A stretch of DNA of 64,000 bases, from contig OY725493.1 in NCBI GenBank assembly GCA_963281255.1, positions 3,875,857 through 3,939,856 on the forward strand, given 5' to 3'. The DNA comes from Aphrocallistes beatrix. Taxonomy: Eukaryota; Porifera; Hexactinellida; Sceptrulophora; Aphrocallistidae. The notes under the pieces are model-generated. The model was not told the DNA's origin. It did not search any database and saw nothing but the letters and a program-made list of their open reading frames with translations. Position numbers and translations under genes: made by a program. Shown piece by piece: positions 2,837 to 62,196 of this stretch; the stretch's first letter is position 1; every line of letters starts with the position of its first letter.

Positions 2837-3634
2837 TTAGATCTTAATACTACACAACGGCAATAGAAAGACAAAAAACAAAATAAAGATTCCAGTTAAT
2901 GAAGGAAATTTTAAAGAAGTAGTAGAAGAAAAAGAAGACCAAATATTATCTTCAGATGATAAATCATAATTAAATAATTTGACTTCTTCGAAAAAAATAT
3001 TTATGTGTTGTCTAGGATGAATTGTGAATGATTTGATTGAGTTAGAAACAATAAAATATACAATTCTGATACTTCCAAAAAAGTCATTTAACAATGTTGA
3101 TTCGAGGGTATGTGGATAAAGATCCAATCTATAGCTTGGGGTACTTTTGAGTAGGTTCCTTTGGAATGTTGCAAAAAGAGAAATTATTGAATCATTTGAA
3201 AAATAAAAGATTTGATCTAAATATTTGACTAAATAAAAAGTCCATTTATCTATCAAATGCAACCCTATATTAGTATCAAGCTGATGTGAAAAAGAATCTT
3301 CACCCAACTTGCTACTTCCAGCTGCAAGAATATTTGGACTTACTAATGTTTGAAACATTGAACTGGCTTGGCAAGTATCAATTAACAATAATATTTCTTT
3401 ATAACGCCCCATCTGCCACATGTGTGAAAATATATCCGAAATTTCAACATTTAAAAGTTCCTCTGAGTCTTGAAATTTTATAAATCCATCTCCACCATGA
3501 CCAGATATATAAACAAGTATATTACTAAATTTATCAGATGACAAACTTTTAGAATTTGGAATCAAAATATTTTGACGCCCAGTTAACACTCTAAAGAAAT
3601 TCTCTACATTCACTTCATACCCTTTGTAATCCAC
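2837..3634 (-). CDS. PIGK: PIGK (GPI transamidase catalytic subunit), last exon
   Basis: This exon encodes the C13 cysteine-protease core and C-terminus of PIGK/GPI8. In the ER lumen that enzyme cleaves the C-terminal signal of proproteins and transfers them to GPI anchors. After the acceptor AG (3635-3636) it reads VDYKGYEVNVENFF. The catalytic His is in ISGHGGDGF (residue 149 of the joined protein) and the catalytic Cys in LLIDTCQASSM (residue 191). Their 42-residue spacing equals that of human His164 and Cys206. A conserved STPSYRLDL and DFFGS segment follows, then a C-terminal membrane helix (GIFILFFVFLLPLC) and TAA. Joined to exon 1 the protein is 368 residues, against about 395 in human. 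The first codon is spliced (GTG, Val), not a start. Confidence 0.93.
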   Translation of the reverse strand: MDYKGYEVNVENFFRVLTGRQNILIPNSKSLSSDKFSNILVYISGHGGDGFIKFQDSEELLNVEISDIFSHMWQMGRYKEILLLIDTCQASSMFQTLVSPNILAAGSSKLGEDSFSHQLDTNIGLHLIDKWTFYLVKYLDQIFYFSNDSIISLFATFQRNLLKSTPSYRLDLYPHTLESTLLNDFFGSIRIVYFIVSNSIKSFTIHPRQHINIFFEEVKLFNYDLSSEDNIWSSFSSTTSLKFPSLTGIFILFFVFLLPLCSIKI

Positions 3635-3707
3635 CTATATGTGAAATATATATAAAAGTACGTAAGATGCATTCAATATAAAAAAGTAACCAATAAAATT
3701 GAATTAT

Positions 3708-4801: not shown

Positions 4802-5369
4802 CAGGGTTGAAACCGAATAGTTGATTATTCGGTTTAACCAAATATTATTTGCAAATAATTGATATTTGGTTTGTAACCAAATATCATTATTTGGTATTCG
4901 GTTGAGAACCAAATAATTTGGTCAACCGAATAATTTGGTCAACCAAATTATTTGGTCAACCGAATAATTTGGTCAACCGAATAATTTGGTCAACTGAATA
5001 TTTAGCCAAACAAATAATTTGCATGCTTTCCCAACACAATAATCACATGTTCTTACAAGAAGTGGTCCGAACACAAATAAATATAATAGGCTTACTTATA
5101 CTTGAATATATTTTTGTATAAATATTTATATAAACATTTATGCAAAAATATAATCAAGTATTATTTGGTTGACCAAATTATTCGGTTGACCAAATTATTT
5201 GGTCGACCAAATATTCGGTTGACCAAATTATTCGGTTGACCAAATATTCGGTTGACCAAATTATTTGGTTGACCAAATATTCGGTTGACCAAATTATTCG
5301 GTTTGACCATTATTTGGTCTACCCATTATTCGGTTAAATTGGTATTTGGTTGAAGCGGTTTCAACCTTG
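4802..5369. mobile_element. Minisatellite-bearing hAT-like element
   Basis: The ends are CAGGGTTGAAACCG and, inverted, CAAGGTTGAAACCG. A perfect 8-bp target duplication CTATTTTT flanks them (4794-4801 and 5370-5377). Most of the interior is a roughly 17-bp tandem unit (AACCGAATAATTTGGTC) on the left and its complement on the right, so the element can fold on itself. A unique core (about 5060-5160) is shared with the second copy at 61661-62196. It has no transposase. Confidence 0.85.
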
Positions 5370-11925: not shown

Positions 11926-11929
11926 TTAA

Positions 11930-13860
11930 GGATACCGCCCGTGAAAAATCCATAGGTTTGGCTTACAGCATATATCAAGAATAGAGATATATAAGATGTT
12001 AAGCGTGGGCAGGTAGTGCAATTAAAAAATATTGTGACATGCCAAACAGTTTTTGGTTCACATTTCTAGTTTTTGAATTACAGCGTCTCAAAGTCGGTTT
12101 TTTCCGTTTTTCCCTAGCACATCTTAATGGTAAGCCCTCCTCCACTCTGTGATTTTTTTAAAGCACATGTTTGGATGAAATGCTTCGAAAATTTATTCAT
12201 AGAGGGTCTATCATATTTGCAACTTCATAGGACCAAAAGAAAGTTAAAATTTTAAAAATTGTAAATTTTATCGGTGTCCGAATAAAAAGGGCCAAAAAAC
12301 GGCGAAAAAAGCCCGATTTTCTTTGGAAATCAGCAATAAAATCACAAATTTATAAAATATCGAAAATCGAGTGGTCCTACGCTCATCGCCTAATAATATG
12401 GAACAACTCCTGAAATTTTCAAACCTCTATCTCAAAGCATTTTTGAGTTAAAATTTTTGAAAGACGGTCAATTTTGGAATTTTAAAGTCCCGAGATATAG
12501 GGATTTGAAGTTTTGGTGGTAAGAACGATGTAAAATGAGCTATTAACGAAAAATAAAAGCATCCATGGACATTTAATCACGTGTATATACTAATGAATTA
12601 GATGTATTCCAACAGATTTTGGTGAAAATAGCAAAATTATACTGAAAATTCACGAATTACCTTGGGCCCCTAACCCCGAATATTTTGAACCAATTAGGGA
12701 ATGTAAATCATATTCCTAGCAGTACAATGTATAATTCATCGGTTTAGAATGAATAAAGAGCTTCTAAAAAGTATATTAGGAAGTTAGAGCGAGAGTCTAC
12801 GACTTTTAGTTTTCAAGTTAGGATTTTCGAAAAATGCTACGTCATCACGTGATAAAAATTTTAAACTTAGCATTCCATTCCATGTAGTACATTTATTATT
12901 TAAGAATCAGATATATACCGTCTTGAAAAGTATATTAGGAATTGAGAGCTAAGAATTTGGGTCTATATTTCCCGAGATATGGAGGAATCTGTTTTTGGAC
13001 CATAAATGGGGGGGCTTTGACCGAAATTTGGAGAAAAATGCTTTGAACTTCCAAAATAATCATGTTGAGTGCTTCAAAGTTTCTCTATACATTGCTAGTG
13101 ACTATTGCATTGTTTTTTGAGTATAATAGCTACTTTTGGGAACTTATTTCATGAAAAGATTCGCCATTTTCTAATATATTCAAAGTTCTCCATAGAATTT
13201 GTATTACAATAAAATCGATGATTAGTCAAGAAATATTTACTTTTTGACAAAGAGATGTTTGAGGAACCTATATATTATCATATATATCCTTTCATTTAAG
13301 ATTATAATAGATTATATATCTTCAATAGTTTTTAAGCATTGACATCGAGCACTTTGGGGGCCATAGAGTGGTTTGATGTCCGAACTTTACCTACAATATA
13401 GTATAACTTACGAACTAATGGTCGGATCTGAACAAACTTTTTTTTAAAATGTTCAGAATTTTATTCCATACACAATAGCTAATATCACAACGGCCATTTC
13501 CCGAGCATTTTAGAAATGAAGTCTCTCATAAATATATTTTTGATTGGATTTCAGGTGCCTCTTTTTCTAAATTCATCTGTTTTATAATATTTAAAGGGGC
13601 CAAAACCATTTTGAGGTTCGTATAATTGAAAAAATATCAGATAAGTTAGAAAATAATTGATGAATGCGCCGCAAAACCACGAATATCTTTCCGATTTTGA
13701 ATACGACTGAGCTTTAGGTGCTCAGTTCTAGAATATCAAAATAAATACCGTCCAACAAGTACGATTAGATGGTAGACTACTCAATAATCCGATGGAATTG
13801 ACAATAAAAAATTCCACCATTTTTTTTAATGTTATGCGTTGTTTTTCGAGGGCGGTATCC
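11930..13860 (+). mobile_element. Non-coding TTAA-flanked element, copy 1 (1931 bp)
   Basis: The element starts GGATACCGCCCGTGAAAAA and ends TTTTTCGAGGGCGGTATCC. TTAA lies directly outside both ends (11926-11929 and 13861-13864), the target duplication of piggyBac- and Kolobok-type transposons. A near-full-length second copy (1929 bp) lies inverted at 51879-53807 and is collinear throughout. No significant ORF occurs in either copy. It is therefore a non-autonomous element that must rely on a transposase encoded elsewhere. Confidence 0.9.
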
Positions 13861-14384
13861 TTAACTTAAATACTCTCCATCAAGCATACAAATTTCAACA
13901 TTTAGTACACTGAGCAAATATCTGGAATTATTGTCACTATACAAGGTGAGCCACAAGTGCTGCAACAATTTTGGTGATGCATTATACTTACACAGGTTAA
14001 TTTAACATCTCACATTTCGTTTGACTCGAAAATTATACGGATTATACTTACTATTAAAACTCGACTAATGTTTGTATATTTACAAGCGTACCTCGCTTAC
14101 TTACGCTGCGCAGCACTTTGTGCCACTCTTCGTCATCATGTCTAATGGTAATGGGAGTGAAAAGTGGCACAAAGTTACATAGATTAATAAAAATTCAACT
14201 TATGAATGAATATAGCATTAGAATGCTTCAAACCTGAGTAATTCCAATGTGTAGAATATGAATTTGAAATCGAATTTACAGTACTATATGTTACAGTTTG
14301 ATTACATATCTCTCCACGAATAGATACACTTTATAACTAGTTATGATGGAAAATAGTAAAGATTTCAAATACTTTTTCCAGTTA

Positions 14385-27660: not shown

Positions 27661-27667
27661 TTAATAA

Positions 27668-28248
<581 letters not shown>

Positions 28249-30921: not shown

Positions 30922-31587
<666 letters not shown>

Positions 31588-31638: not shown

Positions 31639-33827
31639 CAGGGCTGGATTCGGTTAACCGGTTAACCTCAACTTGAATTGAATGGAGTAGAACTCGGTTA
31701 TATGACTCCTCGGAAAGACAAAATTAAATTAATACTACTACGTACTATCCTACCGTATATTCCAATTTAAATGTCAATTGCTCTTGTGTATTCAATCTTC
31801 CGGCATATTTTAACCTACCACTTGTTTTTCTTACTATCCAAACTAGACTATTATATTATCTCAAAGACTCTATAATAGGTATTATTCCTGTTTATATCCC
31901 ATCTTCAAAAATTCATGAATTCTACTCCATCTTGGGTTTGGAGATATATGAAGAGGGCGCATCAAAATTACGAAGGAAAAAAAATGTTTGGTCCAGGATA
32001 CAGAAGGAAAACTTTGCAACAGCACCTTTGCTACAACTACTAGTACAAGTACATTAATGTTCCATCTTAAAGAAAAACATGATATTTCTGACAAAAATTT
32101 TCAAGATTCTATTGCTAAGCGGCAGAAAACGATGGATAGGTGGGTTTCCTGTAATGAGGAAGGATTTACTAAGACCGAAGAATTTTGTGTGACGTGGGCT
32201 ACTTGTGGGTTGTCTTATTGCTTAGTCGATAATCAGCGATTTCATAAAACTTAGTTTATCTTATCCATCAAGTATGAACAGAAAAACTATTAGCCTTAGT
32301 ATGATCAAGTTATCAGAAAAGTTCGACAATGCTGTAAAAGAAAAAAATTGTGGATTCCCATGCACATTGTGTTTCGATGGATGGACTAACCAACACCAAA
32401 AAATTGTCAATTTAGTGGTAATTTGTGAGGGATGTGCTTATTATCTGAATAGTGTACTAGTTGAGCATAACAACGAGGCTACACTGAAAATTCTGGATGA
32501 AGGGAAGCAGATCGTGAAAGAGATGGGTGGGATACTCGTGGCAGTGAGTGGAGATAATTTTAGCGGCGTTGTGGCAGCTATTTCTACTTTTTGTACTGAG
32601 AATCCTCAAGTCATTGGATTCCGATGTCTAGCCCATTCCATACAATTGACAATCAGCGACTTGCTAGACAAGTTCCCATTAAAAAGGGTCATTGAGACTA
32701 TCATACCCTTATTCGTAAAACATTTCAGCGATCCTGATCACAAAAAAAAGTTGAAAGATTTTTAGATTTTATCCGGGAAGTCAGAAAATGGGTGTTTAAA
32801 GCCGATTAAACCAAATGCAACCCGATGGGATTCAACATATCAATGCATCTGTAGAATAATCAAACTTAAAGAATTTCTCCCTTTAGTAGGTCTGACTATT
32901 CAAGAGACCGATTGGGAACTACTCAATTTTTCGAAAATATTTTTGGGTCGGTTTAAGGTGTGTACAGATGAAGTACAAAAGGATTCTTCAACTATAGTGG
33001 ATGGTGTGAAATTGTGGAACCAACTGGTCGATCATATCGGCACTCTTAGTAATCAATCCTCTGATAATTATGATACATTTTTTGACCAAGCTCGAGCGGT
33101 AATTATTAAGCGTACAACTAAGCATATGAGTATTTCCCTTCATATGAAAGTTATAGCATTTCTCAATCCATCCCAAAAAAGTGATTATGAAGATTTAGTG
33201 CGTATTACCGACAAATTATTATCTATGGCAGAGTATTATTTTCAGGAGTTAGGTTTGGATGCTGTTTTGGTTAAGAGCAAGATGTCTAAAATGAGTGGAC
33301 AGATGGTGGCATACGTGCTTGGAGGTGGGTTATGGGAACAAAAATCCGATGAGAACATAATCAACTATTGGATTCGAAGTATTCCGTGCACCGGAGCTGG
33401 CTCGCGTCTCTTTGTTTGCTTGCGCACCACATCCAACCGAAGCATGCGTTGAAAGAACTTTCTCACATCAAGGCCTGATTTCAAGTGATCTTCGTGGTTC
33501 ACTTTCAGAGGAGTCGGTTAGGGCTCTAATGAAGGTCAGATTCAATTATTTATCCCTCTTTACAGAACAAAGTCCAATAGAGCCTGAGATACTACTTTGA
33601 CGCTAGTAAAAATTAAGTATTACCTAGATTTATTAGTATGATAAGTTCAGCGCACTTTCCCAAGTATTATTGGTGGGATAATTATATTCATTTGTCATTT
33701 ATTATATTTTATAATAAATTCTTATAAACTACTATACATTATTTCTACACATCGGTTAACCGGTTAACCGCCAAGACATAATGGATCTTAGCCGCACCCT
33801 AAAGTTGGTTAACCAACCCCAGCCCTG
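31639..33827 (+). mobile_element. hAT transposon with clean ends (2189 bp)
   Basis: The ends are CAGGGCTGGATTCGGTTAAC and the complement of GTTGGTTAACCAACCCCAGC plus CCTG, both with GGTTAACC repeats. The right flank GGGAGCCT and left flank GGGAGCT match as an 8-bp duplication with one base lost. The interrupted CRE/AP-1 repeat reads on correctly across the site, which proves the insertion order. Confidence 0.9.
31988..33600 (+). pseudogene. hAT transposase with BED finger, three lesions
   Basis: It begins with a BED finger (CNSTFATTTSTSTLMFHLKE, then H). A frameshift near 32250 leads into MNRKTISLSMIKLSEKF and the catalytic region (CFDGWTNQHQKIVNLVV, VSGDNFSGVVAAISTF, FRCLAHSIQLTISDLLD). A TAG stop (32763-32765) interrupts an otherwise continuous frame. 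A second frameshift near 33380 precedes the C-terminal dimerisation helix (PTEACVERTFSHQGLISSDL) and TGA near 33600. With few lesions and clean ends this is probably a fairly young copy. Confidence 0.87.
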
Positions 33828-34031
33828 GGGAGCCTAAAATCACATTGGTTAATTATAAGGTGGACAACATTTCTAAATAGTACCTTTATAATCAATATCG
33901 CACGAAAAATCACCAAATTTGACAATTTTTATAATTTTGATGCGTAATGATGACGTCATAACAAAGTGATGAGTCATCATTTTTTGATGATCATATGTGA
34001 GGTATATTAATATAAGCATTCTATTAAAATT

Positions 34032-34458
34032 TTGAAATCACTAGCTGAGCGCTTTGAATTTCACTTCGCCAAAGAACAAGATCCTAGAGAAGGAAACGGT
34101 TGGATCTGTAATCCCTTTTTGCCATTCAAGGACGATTTGAATGTTAAGTTAGAAGACAAGTTATTATACCTGGCTGGGGATGAAGGACTTAAAATTATTT
34201 TTTACTGTGAAATAACACTCGCTGAACTTTGGATAAAAGTTAGACCCGAATATCCAAAACTTTGTGAGTTTGCTCTGAAAGTTATTCTCCTTTTTCCATC
34301 TACTCAACTTTGTGAGATGGGATTTTCAACAATGAGAATTATAAAAACAAAGCAAAGAAATGCTCTGGATGCCAGATCTCCAACGTGTGGCACTCTCCTC
34401 AATCGAAACAAGACTAGATAAGCTCGTCAAATCGAAGCAGGCGCACAGTTCGCATTAA
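34032..34458 (+). pseudogene. ZBED5-like hAT transposase, C-terminal fragment
   Basis: The frame contains NPFLPFKDDLNVKLEDKLL, AELWIKVRPEYPKLCEFALK and LLFPSTQLCEMGFSTMRIIK, the C-terminal region of the hAT branch from which vertebrate ZBED5/FAM200-type genes arose. A frameshift near 34370 moves the last segment (PDLQRVALSSIETRLDKLVK) to another frame ending at TAA. The rest of the gene is missing, and the fragment starts abruptly against a CRE/AP-1 repeat. A hAT right end (TTTGAGAAGCACTG, ending at 34663) lies downstream. Confidence 0.82.
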
Positions 34459-37379: not shown

Positions 37380-37446
37380 CAATATTCCGGAATTCCCGGG
37401 ATTGAATCCGGGATTAAAGCTCCGGGATCCCGGGATTGAAAATCCT
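37380..37446. repeat. CCCGGGATT repeat cluster
   Basis: Several direct and inverted TCCCGGGATTGAA words lie within 65 bases, next to the truncated end of the hAT coding region. Probably the end of a small element; borders unresolved. Confidence 0.4.
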
Positions 37447-37448
37447 AA

Positions 37449-38699
37449 CTATAAAGCACGAGTTAACCTGGAATTGAAGTGCTCTTGCATTGTTTCCCCC
37501 AATTCCAGCTTCATCAGAGAAATCATCAAAGGCTGAGACAATTGACTGGAATGTCCTTGTAACGGAAAGAACAGCATCATGGAGACAAACCCAACTAGTA
37601 TCAGACAGACTGGGAATTTCCCAAACCCTTGAGCTGCGATAGATCGTCTTCTGAGCAGCAACAAACCTAACGTGAACCACACTTGTAGACAGAAAGTTGT
37701 GCATCCGCTGCAGTACTGCGACCATGTCACCTTCACATCCGATCGCGCCAGCCACGTCCACCACCACCAAGTTTAAACGATGTGCAAAACAATGAATGTA
37801 TATCGCCCGAGCGCAAAGCTTTTTGATGCGCTTTTGGACACCAGACAAGTGGTCGCTCATTACAGAGGCACCGTTGTAACACTGTGCAACACATTGATCC
37901 ATTGACACAGCATTGTCACGGAGGGTGTTGAGGATGGTGTTGCACAAGGTCAAGGCGGTTAAATCACTGCATACTGTGAACTTGATGAATCGTTCCTTGA
38001 TCTGGCCCACTTTTACGTACCGCAGGCACAGCGACAGCTGTTCTACTTTTGCAAATCCTTCGTTTCATCAGCTTGCAGGGAAAATACACCCGCTTCGTTG
38101 ATATCACGAACGATGTCATGGCCGGCGCCATGTTTTACTGGCAGTGGGTGTCCTAAGAGGGATTTCTCTGAAAGTGGGTGTCCATTTATGGAGGGATACA
38201 TATTGTACAATATGATAAAACAGGACGCAGTGGGTGTCTGGACACCCCCGGTGGATGTCCTCCGTAACCAGTGCTGCCGCGGAGCGCAAGATATCATCTT
38301 GAATGGAGTGATGAATGTACTAGGCTTGTTTGGGCCATCAGTGAGACGGACGTGAACAATGGGGTCATCCTCAGAAACCAGCACCAGGAATGTGAAGAAG
38401 TTGACACGGTTGAGACCGGGATCTTCTAGGTCTGCAGTTTCCTTATGGCTCCTAAGGGCTATACCCTGCTTCGCGCATATGAGAACCGTCTTCACCACAC
38501 ACCCGATATAGTGTTTGTTTTCATTCACAAGCCTTTCATGTGTATGATCCAGGTGCGTCGCGATGGTATGCCCAGTGCCTTTGGTGTGTTTGTGGTCCAT
38601 CCACCGCTGCATTGCTAAAATGTGTGCATCACTGGCGGCATGCTCCTTGATCTTGTCTGTCCCCTTTTTGAAGTTAGACATACCTCCAGCGCAAAACAC
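37449..38699 (-). pseudogene. hAT transposase (TTF/DUF4371-like), interrupted by a MITE
   Basis: The minus-strand frame starts MFCAGGMSNFKKGTDKIKEH, the tail of a TTF-type zinc finger region. It continues with SLQADETKDLQK, VAQCYNGASVMSDHLSGVQ and IYIHCFAHRLNLVVVD, which are hallmarks of the ZMYM/ZNF862-like hAT group, and VCLHDAVLSVTRTFQSIVSA. A MITE (38142-38274) has been inserted in frame and adds foreign residues between CAPRQHW and the AGHDIVRD segment. A frameshift or stop near 38010-38045 separates two ORFs. The C-terminus is lost. Sequence from 37765 upward is repeated at 42849-43783 as an assembly artefact. Confidence 0.8.
38142..38274. mobile_element. MITE inside the hAT gene
   Basis: It begins CAGTGGGTGTCCTAAGAGGG and contains TGAAAGTGGGTGTCCAT and GGACACCCCCGGTGG. 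An inverted homologue lies at 58077-58214. It reads through in the hAT frame. The right border is approximate. Confidence 0.65.
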
Positions 38700-38756
38700 A
38701 GACGAGCATGTGTGAGCGAAATGACGACATGCAAAGCAGTATATGACTTACTGCTA

Positions 38757-39301
38757 AAATCGATACGACTCGAAAAATCATCAAATTTCCAATTTTTAAA
38801 TTTTTGATGCGTAATGATGACATCATAACAGAGTAATGAGGAATCATTTTTGGATGAGAGTTGTATTATTTGTGAGATATATTAATATACACATTCTTTT
38901 AAAAGTTATAGCCGAAAAACTGAAATTAATAATTATAAAAAGGTGACAAAGACGTCATAATTCCATGAAGAGTAGACATTTTCATCTGAGCACAGAACTT
39001 GGTGGAGCCATAACCAAAAGAACATGCCAAAAATCAGCTTTCTATGCCTGGCAGTTTCTTCAATCAATTCGTTACATATATATATATACATAAATAAATA
39101 TGCAGTCAGGGTCGCTTATTGTGAGCCACCAGGGGACCAAAAAAACTGTTCATAATAGATATACTTCATATTAAGCAAACTTGATTCAATACAAATCCTA
39201 TCTAAGAAATGAAATTGGGACCAGGAGGTTAGTTGATAATAAACGAATGTTCATAATAAGCGACCCTGAATGTACACTAATCGAGTTTTAATAGTAAGGA
39301 T
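38757..39301 (-). repeat. CRE/AP-1 repeat, inverted and diverged, with nested MITE
   Basis: It contains TTTTTGATGCGTAATGATGA, AAAAGAACATGCCAAAAATC, AGTTTCTTCAATCAATTCGT and the inverted head CTAATCGAGTTTTAATAGTA. The TIR element at 39103-39272 separates head from body. The first CRE has decayed to GATGACATCAT. Confidence 0.82.
39103..39272. mobile_element. Short TIR element (170 bp)
   Basis: CAGTCAGGGTCGCTTATTGT and the complement of ATAATAAGCGACCCTGAATG are its ends. TA follows on the right; the left TA appears mutated to TG. Probably a Tc1/pogo-type MITE. Confidence 0.65.
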
Positions 39302-39304
39302 AAA

Positions 39305-40057
39305 TATTGGTTCTAGATGACTTAATTATTAATTAAGAATATCAATAAACCGAGTTGCTTAATTACTATTTATCAAACCTGAGAGATACGATGCATGTAA
39401 TTTGTAATTTGTAAAGAGTTCAAGGTGTACAAAAACACTCTCCCAATTTCTAGGTCATTTGAGTGTGAAAAATTTCAATTTGATATCAGATATTTTACTA
39501 GGTAATCTCCAAGGATTTACCCTTTCCGTACTACCATTTCAATGACACACAATAGTGAGTTGCATATACTTTTGGTCAGGCAAAGTTGGCTATTATAAAG
39601 ATTATGGTCAGCGAATAAAAATTCAACAAATTGGAAATTGAAATATAATTATAGTACACTATTGAGAAGATTCCAGATGTAGCCTGCATGTTCGAGAACT
39701 GCAATTTGAAGATCCCTTTCGAGTCACTCATATGTTCATATGCCCGACAGAGTTTGATCTATCGTATTCATAAATCTAAATTTCAAGGGGATTATTGTAT
39801 GCAAACAAAATATGTATAAGCTTATAATTTAAAATATTACTTACTGAAAGGAAAATAAAATATTTAGTCCTATTTTTTAAAGCAAGTACAACTATTTTCA
39901 AATGAGTTCTAGCAAATTCAGCACTATAAATTCAGTTTTCAGATTGCCAATGAATGAGCAAACATAAGTACAGGCTGCCATTTTTAAAAGCCTCACAGTG
40001 GAACTTGCTTATGAGTAAATGGGGTATGTTCACAAAATGGTCGCAAAATAAGGAACA
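39305..40057. other. PIGK intron, no gene seen
   Basis: AT-rich non-coding sequence with no recognised repeat. An identical stretch occurs at 44389-45141 because of the contig overlap. Confidence 0.55.
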
Positions 40058-40294
40058 CAAGCGCGCTTCGCTTGACTCCGCTGCGCGGCTGGCGGACACA
40101 AAGTGTCCGCCGGAGGCGCCCTGCAGGCGACTGGGGTCACATTGATTAATTATAAGGAAAAAAACATCTCTAAATACGTCTATCCTACTGTTATATTCGT
40201 TATCGCACGAAAAATCACCAAATTTGTCAATTATTAAAATTTTTGATGCGTAATGATGACGTCATAACAAAGTGATGAGTCATCATTTTTTGAT
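40058..40294 (-). repeat. CRE/AP-1 repeat, inverted 3' half
   Basis: It reads CAAGCGCGCTTCGCTTGAC, GGCGGACACAAAGTGTCCGC, CACATTGATTAATTATAAGG, GATGACGTCATAAC and GTGATGAGTCATC, ending at TTTTTTGAT. Close to PIGK exon 1 on its 3' (intron) side. Confidence 0.88.
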
Positions 40295-40475
40295 TCCCCA
40301 GTAAATGGCCTGGGGTAAATGGACTTTTCTCACCAGGTCAAGGGGTAAATATGCAGAAAAGGTTAAGAACCCCTGTCATAAATGAATTGTAAGGTCTCGA
40401 GTTATAATATAAGGTCACGAATTACCCCTATCTACAATAATTAATAGCATTAAGTTAGTAATTGGTACGATTTAC

Positions 40476-40784
40476 CTCGATATTATCAAAGTATAAATTA
40501 TTTTCTTTATCAGTATGGTCAAAAATATATGGAGCATAAGGATTACGAGAGTTACAGGCAATATCATCAGCCAACATCAAAATTATATGACTGTCTGGAA
40601 GTCCAAGCCGCTTCAAACAACTATATATTGAGAGTGTATTCGAAATATGTCTGTAGTTAAACCAAAATCTTGATGAAGAAACCAATACAGCCCAATTGTT
40701 TGAATGGGGTAAAACAAAATCTTCAAGTATTGTCGAGTTCGTAAGGCAAGAAAAGATGAGTATAAAACAACATACGAAAATCAT
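40476..40784 (-). CDS. PIGK: PIGK, first coding exon (left copy)
   Basis: The ATG at 40784 opens a signal peptide ([14 protein letters not shown]), as expected for an ER-lumenal enzyme. The start of the mature domain follows: [20 protein letters not shown], then [20 protein letters not shown] and NLYFDNIE. Family alignment continues directly into VDYKGYEV of the last exon. The donor (GAG then GTAAAT, GT at 40474-40475) and the acceptor at 3635-3636 are canonical, and the junction is phase 0. The exon is 103 codons. The gene thus has only two coding exons here. The identical exon at 45560-45868 belongs to the same locus seen twice. Confidence 0.92.
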
Positions 40785-40976
40785 GAAGGAATAGTAACAA
40801 AAGAAATCTAAATAATAGAAGAAAAATAGGAAATTCTGCAGAAATATAGTCTAGATGAGATTCAAAAGAAAGATGTCACATTTACTCAAGTTTAACTTTG
40901 TGAATCTTAGATTTCAATGTAAAATTCGCATTGATAAAATATGAACATTTTTAAAATATATGTTTTTAGTTTCAAA

Positions 40977-42165
40977 GGGCTGTTGCATGAAAAAATGCCC
41001 CCACCATGGATATTCATGTAATATGGGGGGGGGCAAAATTTAATGGAGTTAGCGTGAAAAATTGCCCCCCCGTGAAAAAATGCCCCCCACCATGGATATT
41101 CTAAAGTATGCCAATGCTTATACAAAACATTTAAGGCTACTGCCCTGATGCATTTTGTGGAAAATATTTTTCCCCCCATTTTTATTTTTATTCCATTTTT
41201 GGATTCTATAGACTCTAGGCTATCAATATCATCCCATTTTGTGGCTTAATTGTATTTTTATTCGCTGAAATGGGTCATTTATCATTTTTTTTTTCTATAT
41301 GGTTGATGTCCACTTCAAGAAACTTTAAATTGGACTATCTCAGAATAATTTTTTCAATATGTGTATTTATTCAATCGAGTCTAACATGAAATGAAGTCAT
41401 GCTTTACCATTGAAAATTGACATAACAGTATAATATCAACCATATTTGAGATCTATCGAAGCATAATTCAACATTTGCCTCTTTAAGATTTCAATATTGG
41501 GGTCGAAAGTTCAAAATAACCCGAAATAATCGAAAATTCGGCGGTCACTTGATTGATTCAACAATAAAATTAAAGTAAATCAAATAAGAGCTAAAAATCG
41601 ACGATAGAGCAATAAACTATGCTTGTTAGAAGTAGTATGAATACTGAAAGTGAATGATTTAACGTAGATTTTCTTGAGTTGCTGGATTTCGATTGTATTA
41701 ATTTCAATAGGAGCCAAAAATAGAAATTCAAAATAATCACGAGTTTGGAAATATGTACAAGTAAGCTGATATACTTAGAATACACTATTCATCCATCAAC
41801 TGTGGATACTAAAACTAGCTAAGCGCTATCTTGTACTGATTCAACGCTGTGCACACTGTCTAATACTAGCTATCAGTGCAGTAGCGTTGAATGCTATTTG
41901 GCTTCTATTCGTTTACTAAAGCATTGCAAATCAACAAACTAGTCGTGTGAAGTAATAACAATGACTTTCATAAATGTATCGTATACAAATAGTATCAGCA
42001 ATATTTAGTGTTAAACTCAAGAATATCCATGGTGGGGGCATTTTTTCATGGGGGGGCAATTTTTCACGCTAACTCCATTAAATTTTGCCCCCCCCCCCAT
42101 ATTACATGAATATCCATGGTGGGGGCATTTTTTCACGGGGGGGGCATTTTTTCATGCAACAGGGC
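40977..42165. mobile_element. G/C-run TIR element next to PIGK exon 1
   Basis: The left end (GCTGTTGCATGAAAAAATGC then CCCCACCATGGATATTCATG) and the right end are reverse complements over about 125 bp, each with two CCATGGATATTC blocks and G or C runs. The interior of about 0.95 kb is AT-rich without a convincing ORF. It lies upstream of the PIGK start, so it could affect the promoter or a 5' UTR intron. No target duplication resolved. Confidence 0.75.
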
Positions 42166-42169
42166 TTAT

Positions 42170-42648
42170 GCACTGGCTTTCAACATGATTTTATCACTAA
42201 CTTTACTAAAGATATATAATTTTCCTTAAATCAGGATCTCTAGAAATATATGATCACTTTACAACATCTAGTTCTATTAGAATGTACAAGTAATATTAAA
42301 TGGTAGAGCTGTAACAGATATCCGGTTCTAATCCGGTAAATGTCGGGATATGGCCAGATAGCGGAATATAACAAGATAAAAAAAGATTTAGCGAATTTAA
42401 TGATTTGGAGCGGGGGTAAATCACTGGGTTAGAGGTACCGCCCAGATTTCTTCGCCACAGACAGACAAAATAGGTGCAGAAAGTTGAAGGGGAATATATT
42501 GAACGTTTAGACGACGAATTTATATAATGTTTATTTGTACTGGGACTTTTGGGACAGCCCTTGTAGAATTTAGTTAGGGGCTATTCCAAATCACTATCTA
42601 AAATTAGACTGGGTACAATTGCAGTATCTTACACCCCCCAACTTTTTG
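42170..42648. other. No gene seen, up to the gap
   Basis: AT-rich sequence upstream of PIGK. Its last bases (CCCCCCAACTTTTTG) lie just inside the left arm of the foldback element, whose full form is seen only in the second contig (47697-49612). Confidence 0.6.
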
Positions 42649-42848
42649 NNNNNNNNNNNNNNNNNNNNNNNNNNNNNNNNNNNNNNNNNNNNNNNNNNNN
42701 NNNNNNNNNNNNNNNNNNNNNNNNNNNNNNNNNNNNNNNNNNNNNNNNNNNNNNNNNNNNNNNNNNNNNNNNNNNNNNNNNNNNNNNNNNNNNNNNNNNN
42801 NNNNNNNNNNNNNNNNNNNNNNNNNNNNNNNNNNNNNNNNNNNNNNNN
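42649..42848. other. Assembly gap of exactly 200 N
   Basis: A round-number placeholder gap. The flanking contig ends overlap by 4.88 kb, so no sequence is missing here. Confidence 0.99.
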
Positions 42849-45800
42849 CACCAAGTTTAAACGATGTGCAAAACAATGAATGTATATCGCCCGAGCGCAA
42901 AGCTTTTTGATGCGCTTTTGGACACCAGACAAGTGGTCGCTCATTACAGAGGCACCGTTGTAACACTGTGCAACACATTGATCCATTGACACAGCATTGT
43001 CACGGAGGGTGTTGAGGATGGTGTTGCACAAGGTCAAGGCGGTTAAATCACTGCATACTGTGAACTTGATGAATCGTTCCTTGATCTGGCCCACTTTTAC
43101 GTACCGCAGGCACAGCGACAGCTGTTCTACTTTTGCAAATCCTTCGTTTCATCAGCTTGCAGGGAAAATACACCCGCTTCGTTGATATCACGAACGATGT
43201 CATGGCCGGCGCCATGTTTTACTGGCAGTGGGTGTCCTAAGAGGGATTTCTCTGAAAGTGGGTGTCCATTTATGGAGGGATACATATTGTACAATATGAT
43301 AAAACAGGACGCAGTGGGTGTCTGGACACCCCCGGTGGATGTCCTCCGTAACCAGTGCTGCCGCGGAGCGCAAGATATCATCTTGAATGGAGTGATGAAT
43401 GTACTAGGCTTGTTTGGGCCATCAGTGAGACGGACGTGAACAATGGGGTCATCCTCAGAAACCAGCACCAGGAATGTGAAGAAGTTGACACGGTTGAGAC
43501 CGGGATCTTCTAGGTCTGCAGTTTCCTTATGGCTCCTAAGGGCTATACCCTGCTTCGCGCATATGAGCACCGTCTTCACCACACACCCGATATAGTGTTT
43601 GTTTTCATTCACAAGCCTTTCATGTGTATGATCCAGGTGCGTCGCGATGGTATGCCCAGTGCCTTTGGTGTGTTTGTGGTCCATCCACCGCTGCATTGCT
43701 AAAATGTGTGCATCACTGGCGGCATGCTCCTTGATCTTGTCTGTCCCCTTTTTGAAGTTAGACATACCTCCAGCGCAAAACACAGACGAGCATGTGTGAG
43801 CGAAATGACGACATGCAAAGCAGTATATGACTTACTGCTAAAATCGATACGACTCGAAAAATCATCAAATTTCCAATTTTTAAATTTTTGATGCGTAATG
43901 ATGACATCATAACAGAGTAATGAGGAATCATTTTTGGATGAGAGTTGTATTATTTGTGAGATATATTAATATACACATTCTTTTAAAAGTTATAGCCGAA
44001 AAACTGAAATTAATAATTATAAAAAGGTGACAAAGACGTCATAATTCCATGAAGAGTAGACATTTTCATCTGAGCACAGAACTTGGTGGAGCCATAACCA
44101 AAAGAACATGCCAAAAATCAGCTTTCTATGCCTGGCAGTTTCTTCAATCAATTCGTTACATATATATATATACATAAATAAATATGCAGTCAGGGTCGCT
44201 TATTGTGAGCCACCAGGGGACCAAAAAAACTGTTCATAATAGATATACTTCATATTAAGCAAACTTGATTCAATACAAATCCTATCTAAGAAATGAAATT
44301 GGGACCAGGAGGTTAGTTGATAATAAACGAATGTTCATAATAAGCGACCCTGAATGTACACTAATCGAGTTTTAATAGTAAGGATAAATATTGGTTCTAG
44401 ATGACTTAATTATTAATTAAGAATATCAATAAACCGAGTTGCTTAATTACTATTTATCAAACCTGAGAGATACGATGCATGTAATTTGTAATTTGTAAAG
44501 AGTTCAAGGTGTACAAAAACACTCTCCCAATTTCTAGGTCATTTGAGTGTGAAAAATTTCAATTTGATATCAGATATTTTACTAGGTAATCTCCAAGGAT
44601 TTACCCTTTCCGTACTACCATTTCAATGACACACAATAGTGAGTTGCATATACTTTTGGTCAGGCAAAGTTGGCTATTATAAAGATTATGGTCAGCGAAT
44701 AAAAATTCAACAAATTGGAAATTGAAATATAATTATAGTACACTATTGAGAAGATTCCAGATGTAGCCTGCATGTTCGAGAACTGCAATTTGAAGATCCC
44801 TTTCGAGTCACTCATATGTTCATATGCCCGACAGAGTTTGATCTATCGTATTCATAAATCTAAATTTCAAGGGGATTATTGTATGCAAACAAAATATGTA
44901 TAAGCTTATAATTTAAAATATTACTTACTGAAAGGAAAATAAAATATTTAGTCCTATTTTTTAAAGCAAGTACAACTATTTTCAAATGAGTTCTAGCAAA
45001 TTCAGCACTATAAATTCAGTTTTCAGATTGCCAATGAATGAGCAAACATAAGTACAGGCTGCCATTTTTAAAAGCCTCACAGTGGAACTTGCTTATGAGT
45101 AAATGGGGTATGTTCACAAAATGGTCGCAAAATAAGGAACACAAGCGCGCTTCGCTTGACTCCGCTGCGCGGCTGGCGGACACAAAGTGTCCGCCGGAGG
45201 CGCCCTGCAGGCGACTGGGGTCACATTGATTAATTATAAGGAAAAAAACATCTCTAAATACGTCTATCCTACTGTTATATTCGTTATCGCACGAAAAATC
45301 ACCAAATTTGTCAATTATTAAAATTTTTGATGCGTAATGATGACGTCATAACAAAGTGATGAGTCATCATTTTTTGATTCCCCAGTAAATGGCCTGGGGT
45401 AAATGGACTTTTCTCACCAGGTCAAGGGGTAAATATGCAGAAAAGGTTAAGAACCCCTGTCATAAATGAATTGTAAGGTCTCGAGTTATAATATAAGGTC
45501 ACGAATTACCCCTATCTACAATAATTAATAGCATTAAGTTAGTAATTGGTACGATTTACCTCGATATTATCAAAGTATAAATTATTTTCTTTATCAGTAT
45601 GGTCAAAAATATATGGAGCATAAGGATTACGAGAGTTACAGGCAATATCATCAGCCAACATCAAAATTATATGACTGTCTGGAAGTCCAAGCCGCTTCAA
45701 ACAACTATATATTGAGAGTGTATTCGAAATATGTCTGTAGTTAAACCAAAATCTTGATGAAGAAACCAATACAGCCCAATTGTTTGAATGGGGTAAAACA

Positions 45801-47733
45801 AAATCTTCAAGTATTGTCGAGTTCGTAAGGCAAGAAAAGATGAGTATAAAACAACATACGAAAATCATGAAGGAATAGTAACAAAAGAAATCTAAATAAT
45901 AGAAGAAAAATAGGAAATTCTGCAGAAATATAGTCTAGATGAGATTCAAAAGAAAGATGTCACATTTACTCAAGTTTAACTTTGTGAATCTTAGATTTCA
46001 ATGTAAAATTCGCATTGATAAAATATGAACATTTTTAAAATATATGTTTTTAGTTTCAAAGGGCTGTTGCATGAAAAAATGCCCCCACCATGGATATTCA
46101 TGTAATATGGGGGGGGGCAAAATTTAATGGAGTTAGCGTGAAAAATTGCCCCCCCGTGAAAAAATGCCCCCCACCATGGATATTCTAAAGTATGCCAATG
46201 CTTATACAAAACATTTTAAGGCTACTGCCCTGATGCATTTTGTGGAAAATATTTTTCCCCCCATTTTTATTTTTATTCCATTTTTGGATTCTATAGACTC
46301 TAGGCTATCAATATCATCCCATTTTGTGGCTTAATTGTATTTTTATTCGCTGAAATGGGTCATTTATCATTTTTTTTTTCTATATGGTTGATGTCCACTT
46401 CAAGAAACTTTAAATTGGACTATCTCAGAATAATTTTTTCAATATGTGTATTTATTCAATCGAGTCTAACATGAAATGAAGTCATGCTTTACCATTGAAA
46501 ATTGACATAACAGTATAATATCAACCATATTTGAGATCTATCGAAGCATAATTCAACATTTGCCTCTTTAAGATTTCAATATTGGGGTCGAAAGTTCAAA
46601 ATAACCCGAAATAATCGAAAATTCGGCGGTCACTTGATTGATTCAACAATAAAATTAAAGTAAATCAAATAAGAGCTAAAAATCGACGATAGAGCAATAA
46701 ACTATGCTTGTTAGAAGTAGTATGAATACTGAAAGTGAATGATTTAACGTAGATTTTCTTGAGTTGCTGGATTTCGATTGTATTAATTTCAATAGGAGCC
46801 AAAAATAGAAATTCAAAATAATCACGAGTTTGGAAATATGTACAAGTAAGCTGATATACTTAGAATACACTATTCATCCATCAACTGTGGATACTAAAAC
46901 TAGCTAAGCGCTATCTTGTACTGATTCAACGCTGTGCACACTGTCTAATACTAGCTATCAGTGCAGTAGCGTTGAATGCTATTTGGCTTCTATTCGTTTA
47001 CTAAAGCATTGCAAATCAACAAACTAGTCGTGTGAAGTAATAACAATGACTTTCATAAATGTATCGTATACAAATAGTATCAGCAATATTTAGTGTTAAA
47101 CTCAAGAATATCCATGGTGGGGGCATTTTTTCATGGGGGGGCAATTTTTCACGCTAACTCCATTAAATTTTGCCCCCCCCCCCATATTACATGAATATCC
47201 ATGGTGGGGGCATTTTTTCACGGGGGGGGCATTTTTTCATGCAACAGGGCTTATGCACTGGCTTTCAACATGATTTTATCACTAACTTTACTAAAGATAT
47301 ATAATTTTCCTTAAATCAGGATCTCTAGAAATATATGATCACTTTACAACATCTAGTTCTATTAGAATGTACAAGTAATATTAAATGGTAGAGCTGTAAC
47401 AGATATCCGGTTCTAATCCGGTAAATGTCGGGATATGGCCAGATAGCGGAATATAACAAGATAAAAAAAGATTTAGCGAATTTAATGATTTGGAGCGGGG
47501 GTAAATCACTGGGTTAGAGGTACCGCCCAGATTTCTTCGCCACAGACAGACAAAATAGGTGCAGAAAGTTGAAGGGGAATATATTGAACGTTTAGACGAC
47601 GAATTTATATAATGTTTATTTGTACTGGGACTTTTGGGACAGCCCTTGTAGAATTTAGTTAGGGGCTATTCCAAATCACTATCTAAAATTAGACTGGGTA
47701 CAATTGCAGTATCTTACACCCCCCAACTTTTTG
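42849..47733. repeat. Right copy of the falsely duplicated block
   Basis: Repeats 37765-42648. It contains second views of the hAT gene (to 43783), its MITE (43226-43358), the CRE/AP-1 copies (43841-44385 and 45142-45378), PIGK exon 1 and the G/C-run element (46061-47250). These should not be counted as independent loci. Confidence 0.96.
45560..45868 (-). CDS. PIGK: PIGK, first coding exon (right copy, duplicate view)
   Basis: Identical in sequence and splice donor to 40476-40784. I regard it as the same exon represented twice. If the duplication were real, it would be a second exon 1 and the intron to the last exon would be about 42 kb. Confidence 0.85.
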
Positions 47734-49053
47734 TACGATGGTCAAAATCGCTATGTGCACCGTTATAGAACTCGTTGAAAGAAGCTTATAGAGCAAAAGA
47801 TTTCAAAAATCGGTCCACAAACAAAAAAGTTACGACAAATTTCCTATCTAAGCCAAATCCTATAGGGAAAATTGTATTAGTCACTCCAGTCAAATTGCAT
47901 TGGTTTATGCATTGCAAACTACCATAGTAATGCGCATACTAGATGTTGAGGTTAATCACACTTCTTCAATTACGTATTCCTCTATATTGTTTATACTAGA
48001 TGCGTTTTGTTACGCAATTTATGTGCTGCTTATTTAAATGGCTGTCAGACCTAATATTCCATCAGGCCAAAATTTATCCTGTTTTTAATTCCGAGATTAT
48101 TTGAGGGTTCCACTAGGCTAAAAGGAAGAACTGTAGCACATGATGTGATCTAGACCAGAGGTTCTTAACAGGATTTTTTTAGAAATTTATTTATCAAATT
48201 GGGTAAACCTTATAATATCTGCACAAAGTAAAGTTAAATAAATATTTACAAATGGTGACCAAATATACAAGTAATATGTTCAATATCCATCGCTATTAGT
48301 TTACAATAAGCGTATCTAAAAAGTAAACCTGCAAGCCATCATTAACATATTTCACGTAATTGGCGCAAATTTATTAATTTAGAGAAGGGGGCCCTGCCCG
48401 TCTACGTGTCAGTCCCAGGTATTGCTCTCGCGGGCCTTGCACTTAAATATTGATTGCAGTTAGTTTCCAAATGGCAACCAGTAAAATTACTCAATTGGTA
48501 AATGAATGAAGCAACAAAATGAAGGAGTATAATTACTTCAGCTAATGTAGCACTCAGGGATCAAAAACTCCCTTAACCTCTCGATACGATATTCGAATTA
48601 ATCATTGAAAGTTGGTCGAAGGTCATGTTTAGACTTTTGAAGTCCACCAATTCGTTTAGGCTTAGTACGATTCCTATAAGTTGGGTGCTGTCATGCATAA
48701 ATTACAAGCTAAAATTTGCAGCAGTATTGCGTATAGACATCATAAATTGCGTAACAAAACGCATCTAGTATAAACAATATAGAGGAATACATAATTGAAG
48801 AAGTGTGATTAACCTCAACATCTAGTATGCGCATTACTATGGTAGTTTGCAATGCATAAACCAATGCAATTTGACTGGAGTGACTAATACAATTTTCCCT
48901 ATAGGATTTGGCTTAGATAGGAAATTTGTCGTAACTTTTTTGTTTGTGGACCGATTTTTGAAATATTTTGCTCTATAAGCTTCTTTCAACGAGTTCTATA
49001 ACGGTGCACATAGCGATTTTGACCATCGTACAAAAAGTTGGGGGGTGTAAGAT

Positions 49054-51502: not shown

Positions 51503-51878
51503 CTACTATTTGAGCCCAATGTATTTACATTATAAAACAATCGAATATGATTGGTCAGCACATTTTCTCACCTATCTCGGCTAGGTGTGAACATTTCGCT
51601 TTGATCTTCGAACTCCCTTCTAGTTTCATTATTACTTACCTGTGTGCCAAATTTCACGTTTCTAGCACCTCCCAGTTCCTCAACCAATTCGCACAAAAAA
51701 ACAAAAAAGAACATTGCGTTTTAATATATAAGATTAGATATTTTACAAAGATTTTGAGAGATTTTTCAAGAAATATGATAGTTTGAATAAGTTTTATGTG
51801 TAGCCCTGTATTTGTGGTTGGTTTGTCCAAATTGGTTGAGGTATTGGCAGGTTGTCGAAATTGTTTGTATTTTCTTAA

Positions 51879-53807
51879 GGATACCGCCCTCGAAAAACAT
51901 CGCAAAACATTAAAAAAAATTGTGGAATTTTTTATTGTCAATTCCATCGGATTATTGAGTAGTCTACCATCTAATCGTACTTGTTGGACGGTATTTATTT
52001 TGATATTCTAGAACTGGGCACCTAAAGCTCAGGCGTACTAAAAATCGGAAAGTTATTCGTGATTTTGCGGGGCATTCATCAATTATTTTCTAACTTATCT
52101 GATATTTTTTCAATTATACGAACCTCAAAATGGTTTTGGCCCCTTTAAATATTATAAAACAGATGAATTTAGAAAAAGAGGCACCTGAAATCCAATCAAA
52201 AATATCTTTATGAGGGACTTCATTTCTAAAATGCTCGGGAAATGGCCGTTGTGATATTAGCTATTGTGTATAGAAAAAAATTCTGAACATTGAAAAAAAA
52301 AGTTTGTTCAGATCGGACCATTAGTTCGTAAGTTATAGTATATTGTAGGTAAAGTTCGGACATCAAACCACTCTATGGCCCCCAAAGTGCTCGATGTCAA
52401 TGCCTAAAAACTATTGAAGATATATAATCTATAATAATCTTAAATGAAAGGATATATATGATAATATATAGGTTCCTCAAACATCTCTTTGTCAAAAAGT
52501 AAATATTTCTAGACTAATCATCGTTTTTGTTGTAATACAAATTCTATGGAGAACTTTGAATATATTAGAAAATGGTGAATCTTGTCATGAAATAAGTTCC
52601 CAAAAGTAGCTATTATACTCAAAAAACAATGCAATAGTCACTAGCAATGTATACAGAAACTTTGAAGCACCCAACATGATTATTTTGGAAGTTCAAATCA
52701 TTGATCTCCAAATTTTAGTCAAAGCCCCCCCATTTATGCTCCAAAAACAGATTCCTCCATATCTCGGGAAATATACACCAAAATTCTTAGCTCTCAATTC
52801 CTAATATACTTTTCAAGACGGTATATATCTGATTCTTAAATAATAAATGTACTACATGGAATGGAATGCTAAGTTTCAAATTTTTATCACGTGATGACGT
52901 AGCATTTTTCGAAAATCCTAACTTGAAAACTAAAAGTCGTAGACTCTCGCTCTAACTTCCTAATATACTTTTTGGTAGCTCTTTATTCATTCTAAACCGA
53001 TGAATTATACATTGTACTGCTAGGAATATGATTTACATTCCCTAATTGGTTCAAAATATTCGGGGTTAGGGGCCTCAAGGTAATTTGTGAATTTTCAGTA
53101 TAATTTTGCTATTTTCACCAAAATCTGTTGGAATACATCTAATTAATTAGTATACACGCGATTAAATGTCCATGGATGCTTTTATTTTTCGTTAATAGCT
53201 CATTTTACATCGTTCTTACCATCAAAACTTCAAATCCCTATATCTCGGGACTTTAAAATTCCAAAATTGACCGTCTTTCAAAAATTTTAACTCAAAATTG
53301 CTTTGAGATAGAGGTTTGAAAATTTCAGGAGTTGTTCCATATCATTAGGCGATGAGCGTAGGACCACTCAATTTTTGATATTTTATAAATTTGTGATTTT
53401 ATGCTGATTTGCAAAGAAAATCGGACTTTTTTCGCCGTTTTTTGGCCCTTTTTATTCGGACACCGATAAAATTTACAATTTTTAAAATTTTAACTTTCTT
53501 TTGGTCCTATGAAGTGGCAAATATGATAGACTATCTATGAATAAATTTTCGAAGCATTTGATCCAAACATGTGCTTTAAAAAAATCACAGAGTGCAGGAG
53601 GGCTTACCATTAAGATGTGCTAGGGAAAAACGGAAAAAACCGACTTTGAGACGCTGTAATTCAAAAACTAGAAATGTGAACCAAAAACTGTTTGGCATGT
53701 CTCAATATTTTTTAATTGCACTACCTGCCCACGCTTAACATCTTATATATCTCTATTCTTGATATATGCTGTAAGCCAAACCTATGGATTTTTCACGGGC
53801 GGTATCC
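51879..53807 (-). mobile_element. Non-coding TTAA-flanked element, copy 2 (1929 bp)
   Basis: It starts GGATACCGCCCTCGAAAAA and ends TTTTTCACGGGCGGTATCC, with TTAA directly outside (51875-51878 and 53808-53811). It is the reverse complement of 11930-13860 along its whole length with scattered substitutions and small indels. No ORF. Confidence 0.9.
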
Positions 53808-54454
53808 TTAACAAAATGATTGTATATTTTCATTCTACTCGTATAGGGCGAAAAGAGTTTCCTAATAAAACAATTGGTAACGAATGAATCAAAAGATCGC
53901 ATCTTCCAAACTGGCTAACCAGAACGAGTGTAATCTTAGCGGCGGATTCGAATTTAAACTTAATCACTCTAACTCGAAAAGTTTTTAGCCACAAATTCAG
54001 TTTTCATTGAAATCGGATTGCAATTTTAGATATTATTCACTATATTTTACTTGTTAGTAACCCAAATTTTAAGTTGATACGATGATCCTGCTATGATTTA
54101 CGTAACTTAGAGCATACATGACTTGAGTAATTCACTCTACAACACAATGAATCTTAATCGTGAGCATTTTCGTGCTATGATATAGTACGATTATAAGTCT
54201 GGGTTATCACATCGTCAGTGTCATGAACGATTGAATTCCGCTTTTGGGGAATGTGCCCCGGGATTTTCATCAGTTACCAATTGGTATCGAGAGTTTTCCC
54301 GTGGGCGGGATATGCTTGGAGACGAAGCGCGAATCGGTAGACCGGTAACTGCAACAACTGGAGATCAAGTAGATCAGGTTCGATGTAATTCAGACTACTC
54401 TAGGGATATATCATACATAAATATTTCAAACAAAGGTCAACGAAAAATTTCTCA

Positions 54455-54965
54455 TATAGATCCGAAAATATAATATTCGAAATCTACAGTACTAAAAACC
54501 CCATGTCAACCGTTGGAAGCTAGTCTCTGGTCTATTTTTGTAATTTGTTTACTTTATGTATCTATTGTAAACAAAAGTAAACAAATTGATCATCAAATTT
54601 ACTCGAAAATATGATATTCGAAATCTACACCCCTAAAACCCCATGTCAACCGTTGAAAGCAAGTTTCTAGCATATTTTTGATATTTGTTTACTTCATGTA
54701 TCTATTGTAAACAAAAGTAAACAAATTGATCACCAAATTTACTCGAAAATATTATATTCGAAATCTACACCCCTGAAAACCCCATGTCAACCGTTGAAAG
54801 CAGGTTTCTAGCATATTTTTGAGATTTGTTTACTTTATGTAACTAATGTAGACAAAAGTAAACAAATACTTTATCATATAGATCTGAAAATATGATATTC
54901 GAAATCTACACCCCTAAAAACCCCATGTCACCCGTTGGAAGCTAGTCTCTAGCATTATTTTCAAA
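54455..54965. repeat. Tandem repeat, about 140-bp unit, 3.6 copies
   Basis: CGAAATCTACA recurs at about 54479, 54619, 54759 and 54900. Each unit has ACCCCATGTCAACCGTTG, a GTTTACTTTATGTATCTA/GTAAACAAAAGTAAACAAAT dyad and TACTCGAAAATAT. The array lies inside the mariner gene, within a larger insert that ends near 55284. Confidence 0.88.
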
Positions 54966-61660: not shown

Positions 61661-62196
61661 CAATTAAATATAATTGGCTTACTTATACTTGAATATATTT
61701 TTGTATAAATATTTATATAAACATTTATGCAAAAATATAATCAAGTATTATTTGGTTGACCAAATTATTCGGTTAACCAAATTATTCGGTTGACCAAATT
61801 ATTCGGTTAACCAAATTATTCGGTTGACCAAATTATTCGGTTAACCAAATTATTCGGTTGACCAAATTATTCGGTTGACCAAATTATTCGGTTAACCAAA
61901 TTATTCGGTTGACCAAATTATTCGGTTAACCAAATTATTCGGTTGACCAAATTATTCGGTTGACCAAATTATTCGGTTAACCAAATTATTCGGTTGACCA
62001 AATTATTCGGTTAACCAAATTATTCGGTTGACCAAATTATTCGGTTGACCAAATTATTCGGTTGACCAAATTATTTGGTCTGACCATTATTCGGTTAACC
62101 AAATTATTCGGTTTGACCATTATTCGGTTGACCAAATTATTTGGTCTGACCATTATTCGGTTAAAATGGTATTTGTTTGAAGCGGTTTCAACCTTG
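61661..62196. mobile_element. Minisatellite-bearing hAT-like element, left-truncated
   Basis: It shares the unique core (TTATACTTGAATATATTTTT) and right end (GAAGCGGTTTCAACCTTG) with 4802-5369. Between them the roughly 17-bp unit TTATTCGGTTGACCAAA is expanded to about 20 copies (61745-62160), alternating GGTTGACC and GGTTAACC variants. The left arm is absent. Confidence 0.88.

What the first reader, a model, noticed from the sequence alone, without database searches (positions are those of the whole stretch)
37765..47733. Unmerged contig overlap presented as a tandem duplication across a 200-N gap
Bases 37765-42648 and 42849-47733 are the same sequence with one substitution and one T-run indel. 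The first copy ends exactly at the gap and the second begins exactly after it. A biological duplication would not align its borders with a scaffold gap on both sides. Any annotation here would double-count PIGK exon 1, a hAT gene and several repeats.
Basis: seen in the sequence. Interest (0 to 1): 0.8.

Follow-up and report, generated by a model that had tools for sequence, protein, structure and literature searches.

The report
Unmerged contig ends mimicking a duplication
A 4.9-kb stretch appears twice, one copy on each side of a 200-N scaffold gap, almost certainly because two overlapping pieces of one genome assembly were laid end to end without being merged; it is an ordinary assembly artefact, not a real duplication.

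Summary

Sequence evidence points to one locus. (1) A hAT-like transposase frame runs unbroken through the left border in the left copy and is cut at the gap in the right copy; 4 of 6 non-self relatives pass the border ungapped. (2) A terminal-inverted-repeat element runs across the right border, as do 33 of 52 genome match rows to other places; the left copy has only its first ~37 bases before the Ns. (3) PIGK exon 1 occurs twice, but the rest of the gene was found once, in the left contig.

Rhie et al. [quoted passage not shown] No reads were available, so depth and spanning reads are untested, and no other gap was found for comparison. Whether the two differences are alleles or errors is undecided.

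The parts
37765..42648 (+). left contig's terminal 4,884 bases (suffix of the dovetail overlap)
42649..42848 (.). scaffold gap, 200 N, the only N run in the window
42849..47733 (+). right contig's first 4,885 bases (prefix of the dovetail overlap)
37414..38064 (-). hAT-like transposase reading frame (stop to stop) crossing the left border 37765; in the right copy it meets the gap
   Evidence: DUF4371 match below Pfam's cut-off; relatives P0002, P0003 bear PF14291
38043..38747 (-). second frame of the same hAT-like gene inside the overlap (zf-C17orf113 match below Pfam's cut-off); other copy at 43127-43831
40455..40850 (-). PIGK (GPI-anchor transamidase) exon 1 frame, left copy; likely donor site after ...DNIE (GAG|GTAAAT)
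45539..45934 (-). PIGK exon 1 frame, right copy (orphan: no second set of later exons found)
2837..3634 (-). remainder of PIGK (Peptidase_C13 positions 72-215), the only such match found in the genome; likely acceptor ATAG|GTGGAT
47697..49053 (+). terminal-inverted-repeat element crossing the right border 47733 (arms 47711-48023 and 48741-49053, 99.4% alike)
42612..42648 (+). first ~37 bases of the same element in the left copy, cut by the gap

Best explanation
The two copies are one genomic locus read twice. The left contig ends, and the right contig begins, inside the same 4.9-kb stretch. The assembler did not merge the ends; the scaffolder placed the contigs side by side and put in a fixed 200-N spacer, which cannot express a negative gap. 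The true order is then left flank, one copy, and the sequence from 47734 on, so the scaffold is about 5.1 kb too long here. Shown: the exact dovetail, continuity of a hAT-like frame and of a transposable element each in one copy only, and one PIGK gene with an orphan second exon 1. Inferred: the assembly step that failed, and why (two allelic differences or consensus errors, possibly helped by the inverted-repeat element at the left contig's end).
For: Exact suffix-prefix match on both sides of a 200-N gap. The hAT-like frame is continuous through 37765, CFAHRLNLV | VVDV, ungapped there in 4 of 6 non-self relatives. A C4 paralogue spans the border over query 1-600, while the right copy stops at query base 300, which is the gap; 3 matches in all. 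The element at the right border continues across it in 33 of 52 rows, not counting the place itself, its own second arm and the left copy. PIGK positions 72-215 were found once and 1-68 twice, 3 matches in all. Splice-like donor GAG|GTAAAT and acceptor ATAG|GTGGAT would give ...NIE-VDYKGYEV, in line with VEVDYRSY of the solved GPI-anchor transamidase 7w72_K. Published description of the same artefact.
Against: No reads, depth or Hi-C could be examined. No second gap was found as a within-assembly control: 0 of 20 random 10-kb stretches hold N. Contig lengths attached to protein hits (302,210 and 1,183,806) did not predict gap places: 0 of 4 places tested held N. The two differences are compatible with two alleles, two paralogues or two errors. 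The C4 hAT paralogue is 9 bases shorter right beside the left border, and one match row to the right-border element (C9:3071670-3071709) ends only two bases past the border, so a short stub of the element can occur elsewhere.
Confidence: 0.95

Rival explanations
1. A real, very recent tandem duplication of 4.9 kb whose junction happens to coincide with an assembly gap.
For: Two near-identical head-to-tail copies on one scaffold; two differences exist.
Against: If a break falls evenly at random in a two-copy array, about 1 position in 9,769 gives a match ending at the gap on both sides (arithmetic, not a simulation). The right copy lacks the rest of its hAT-like frame and the left copy lacks the rest of its TIR element exactly at the gap. 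The right PIGK exon 1 has no gene. The 12 bases printed on either side of each outer border show no shared ends, and the left flank has no match at E 1e-10 or better to any right-hand sequence next to the border.
Confidence: 0.03
2. A longer tandem array of this unit, collapsed by the assembler to one repeat node that was given to both flanking contigs.
For: Would also place both borders at the gap (inference); not excluded without depth.
Against: Queries from parts of the segment found only the two copies at full length: 249 bases, 300 of 600 bases, 250 of 500 bases, 901 bases (40 of 3,694 candidates scored); the whole segment was not queried. A 4.9-kb unit should usually be resolvable with long accurate reads (general knowledge; read type unknown).
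Confidence: 0.02
3. Sub-case of the best explanation, not exclusive with it: the left end comes from one haplotype and the right end from the other, so the two differences are heterozygous sites (closer to the published heterotype class). The confidence given is that of this sub-case within the best explanation.
For: One A/C difference and one T3/T4 indel, neither in a long homopolymer.
Against: Only 2 differences in 4,885 columns; consensus errors or low coverage at contig ends would do as well.
Confidence: 0.5

Closest known systems
[quoted passage not shown] 2021, PMC8081667; passages seen)
   Same: Dovetailing contig ends, head-to-tail with a gap between after scaffolding; by the evidence here, the same locus twice.
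   Different: Length is said to be often that of a corrected read; the read length here is unknown. Two differences are present whose origin is unknown.
False duplications on one scaffold (Ko et al. 2022, PMC9516828; passages seen)
   Same: Gap between the duplicated pair on the same scaffold; an exon-level false gain (PIGK exon 1).
   Different: Their depth, k-mer and discordant-read criteria could not be applied here.
False segmental duplications caused by genome mis-assembly (PMC2864568; title and start of abstract seen in a search listing)
   Same: Apparent recent duplication made by assembly.
   Different: The abstract's start speaks of especially polymorphic regions of diploid genomes; here the copies are 99.96% alike.

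Membership tests
Homotype false duplication at contig boundaries (Rhie et al. 2021) | the duplicated sequences lie at contig boundaries, with a gap between them after scaffolding | tested here: met
Homotype false duplication at contig boundaries (Rhie et al. 2021) | dovetail: suffix of one contig equals prefix of the next | tested here: met
   match reaches the gap on both sides
Homotype false duplication at contig boundaries (Rhie et al. 2021) | both copies come from the same genomic locus | tested here: inconclusive
   strongly supported but only indirectly, by sequence continuity: hAT-like frame, TIR element, PIGK; direct proof needs reads
Homotype false duplication at contig boundaries (Rhie et al. 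2021) | length often about that of a corrected read | tested here: inconclusive
   4,885 bases; read length unknown
Homotype false duplication at contig boundaries (Rhie et al. 2021) | k-mer copy-number excess in the assembly; consensus quality or depth anomaly | not testable with these tools
   no reads
Heterotype false duplication (Rhie et al. 2021; Ko et al. 2022) | haplotype-specific one-copy k-mers in both copies at half depth | not testable with these tools
   two differences exist but no reads
Real tandem duplication | sequenced junction between copy 1 and copy 2 | tested here: not met
   the junction is replaced by 200 N

The most novel reading that the evidence does not exclude
A genuine, extremely young tandem duplication, or collapsed array, that doubles the first coding exon of PIGK in this individual, with the assembly gap sitting on its junction.
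Probability: 0.04. Interest if true: 0.2.

Novelty: not a real feature. Interest (0 to 1): 0.08.

Why it matters
Uncorrected, the scaffold is about 5.1 kb too long here. Annotation would count PIGK exon 1, part of a hAT-like gene, an inverted-repeat pair (40988-41102 / 42020-42135) and a dispersed repeat twice. It is a reminder to compare the two flanks of every fixed-size gap before reading tandem duplications. There is no biological novelty.

Tried and rejected
A within-assembly control (do other gaps show overlaps?) failed. Of 60 random 10-kb stretches drawn from C1-C18 with partly assumed contig lengths, 20 were fetched and 0 of 20 held any N; the other 40 were not given. Among the 22 match loci L001-L022, N runs occur only in L002 and L014, which both cover this same gap.

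Contig lengths reported with protein hits were tried as pointers to neighbouring gaps. P0001 (hAT-like frame across the left border): 1 contig, 302,210. P0008 (frame inside the overlap): 2 contigs, longest 1,183,806. P0014 (PIGK remainder): 1 contig, 1,183,806. They suggest that another contig set also holds the overlap segment on two contigs. But the 4 gap places predicted from them showed no N, and P0001 and P0014, which lie on one contig here, fall on contigs of different length there. I give this no weight.

Rfam on the window gave nothing at gathering scores and ARAGORN, run with the bacterial code, found no tRNA. A search for ribosomal RNA, meant to find repeat-rich gap sites, did not complete. 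Paper searches beyond those cited and passages of PMC12004614 gave nothing that bears on 200-N gaps between overlapping contigs.

Considered and rejected: chance similarity; a dispersed repeat as the cause of the whole match (in the queries made, only parts of the segment match elsewhere); duplication by recombination between flanking repeats (no shared sequence at the outer borders). The C4 hAT paralogue is 9 bases shorter just beside the left border, so alone it would be a weaker witness; the protein relatives carry the full stretch.

Full report
Observation. The window holds one run of N, 42649-42848, exactly 200 long. Comparing all sequence left of it with all sequence right of it, the best match is 37765-42648 against 42849-47733: 4,885 columns, 99.959% identity, one mismatch, one gap. 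The differences are A/C at 38484/43568 and TTT/TTTT at about 41129/46214. The match runs to the last base before the gap on one side and from the first base after it on the other. So it is a full dovetail overlap. The window is C7:3875857-3939856 of a 100.5-Mb, 28-contig genome. The organism was not identified: the PIGK remainder has 778 hits, and among the 120 listed the non-self ones, from animals, plants and fungi where named, are 45-55% identical.

Left border. A minus-strand frame, 37414-38064, runs through 37765 without a stop; residue 99 ends exactly at the border, CFAHRLNLV | VVDVAGAIG. I call it hAT-like: its DUF4371 match (21.3 bits) and the zf-C17orf113 match of the neighbouring frame (21 bits) lie below Pfam's cut-offs, but relatives P0002 and P0003 bear PF14291 and so does P0008. 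That these domains and the CxxHRLNL stretch are typical of hAT transposases is recalled. Of six relatives other than the window's own protein, four (P0002, P0003, P0005, P0006) pass the border without a gap, one begins just past it (P0004) and one reads differently there (P0007). In the genome the 600 bases centred on the border have three matches: itself, a paralogue on C4 that spans query 1-600, and the right copy, which stops at query base 300, i.e. at the gap. The C4 paralogue lacks 9 bases just beside the border. So the left copy looks intact across the border, and the right copy is simply where a contig starts.

Right border. An element with 313-base terminal inverted repeats, 99.4% alike, occupies about 47697/47711-49053. 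Querying 47484-47983 gave 52 rows, 40 of 55 first-look candidates being scored. One row is the place itself, one is the left copy, which stops at query base 250 (the gap), and one is the element's own second arm. Thirty-three further rows cross the border point; they are arms, so elements are fewer than rows, and four of them are only 69-77% alike. The remaining sixteen are a piece on C9 that ends two bases past the border, a distal piece, and 14 matches to repeats inside the segment. So the left copy holds only the first ~37 bases of an element that continues in the right copy: a contig end.

PIGK. The frame 40455-40850 (minus) matches Peptidase_C13 over the cut-off and solved GPI-anchor transamidases, best 7w72_K at 6.7e-34. 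In the whole genome the family gives three matches: model positions 1-68 twice (the two copies) and 72-215 once, at 3212-3637 minus, in the left contig. A donor-like GAG|GTAAAT and an acceptor-like ATAG|GTGGATTAC lie where the protein should continue...NIE | VDYKGYEV, like VEVDYRSY in 7w72_K. No transcript was seen. One gene looks complete in the left contig; the right exon 1 has no partner.

Mechanism. Rhie et al. 2021 (PMC8081667; [quoted passage not shown] Ko et al. 2022 (PMC9516828; [quoted passage not shown] Fixed 200-N gaps occur in at least one Hi-C-scaffolded assembly (PMC12134992; passage seen) whose paper also names YaHS (search listing). That YaHS writes 200 N by default is recalled; the passages of its paper that I saw do not say it (PMC9848053). 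I infer that the two contig ends were not merged and that a fixed spacer was put between them. Whether the two differences are alleles or errors is open.

Alternatives. A real two-copy duplication would need its junction to coincide with the break (about 1 in 9,769 positions, arithmetic) and would leave unexplained why each copy's boundary-crossing feature is cut exactly at the gap. No third full-length copy was seen with queries from parts of the segment, but only the best candidates are scored there, and depth is needed.

Limits. No reads were available. No other gap was found for comparison: 0 of 20 fetched random stretches (40 of the 60 drawn could not be had) and 0 of 4 predicted places held N. 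Contig lengths attached to protein hits are unexplained and carry no weight here.

Verdict.

Noticed in passing
47697-49053: Terminal-inverted-repeat element with 313-base arms 99.4% alike; many of its match rows elsewhere in the genome are 92-99% identical, so it was probably active recently.
   Followed up: partly
40057-40294 (and 45141-45378): A ~238-base dispersed repeat, mostly about 90% alike in scored copies; the 901-base query that holds it had 3,694 first-look candidates, 40 scored. SINE-like abundance; class not tested.
   Followed up: no
11926-13864 and 51875-53811: A 1.94-kb pair in opposite orientation, 97% identical; unidentified repeat.
   Followed up: no
31952-34421: A second hAT-like transposase in several frames, one with a DUF659 match over the cut-off; the link of DUF659 with hAT is recalled.
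   Followed up: no
54186-54473: Frame with a HTH_48 (Mos1 transposase) match over the cut-off: a mariner-like remnant.
   Followed up: no
27662-28248 and 30923-31114: Long (TAA)n arrays, 195 and 64 units.
   Followed up: no
4907-5335 and 61747-62162: 17-base satellite ATTATTCGGTTGACCAA near both ends of the window, in both orientations in the first place.
   Followed up: no
2837-40850: PIGK looks like a gene with two coding exons and a ~37-kb intron, long for a 100-Mb genome.
   Followed up: partly
P0001, P0008, P0014: Protein hits identical to the window's lie on contigs of 302,210 and 1,183,806 bases that do not fit the gap places of this scaffold; possibly another assembly or haplotype of the same organism.
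   Followed up: partly
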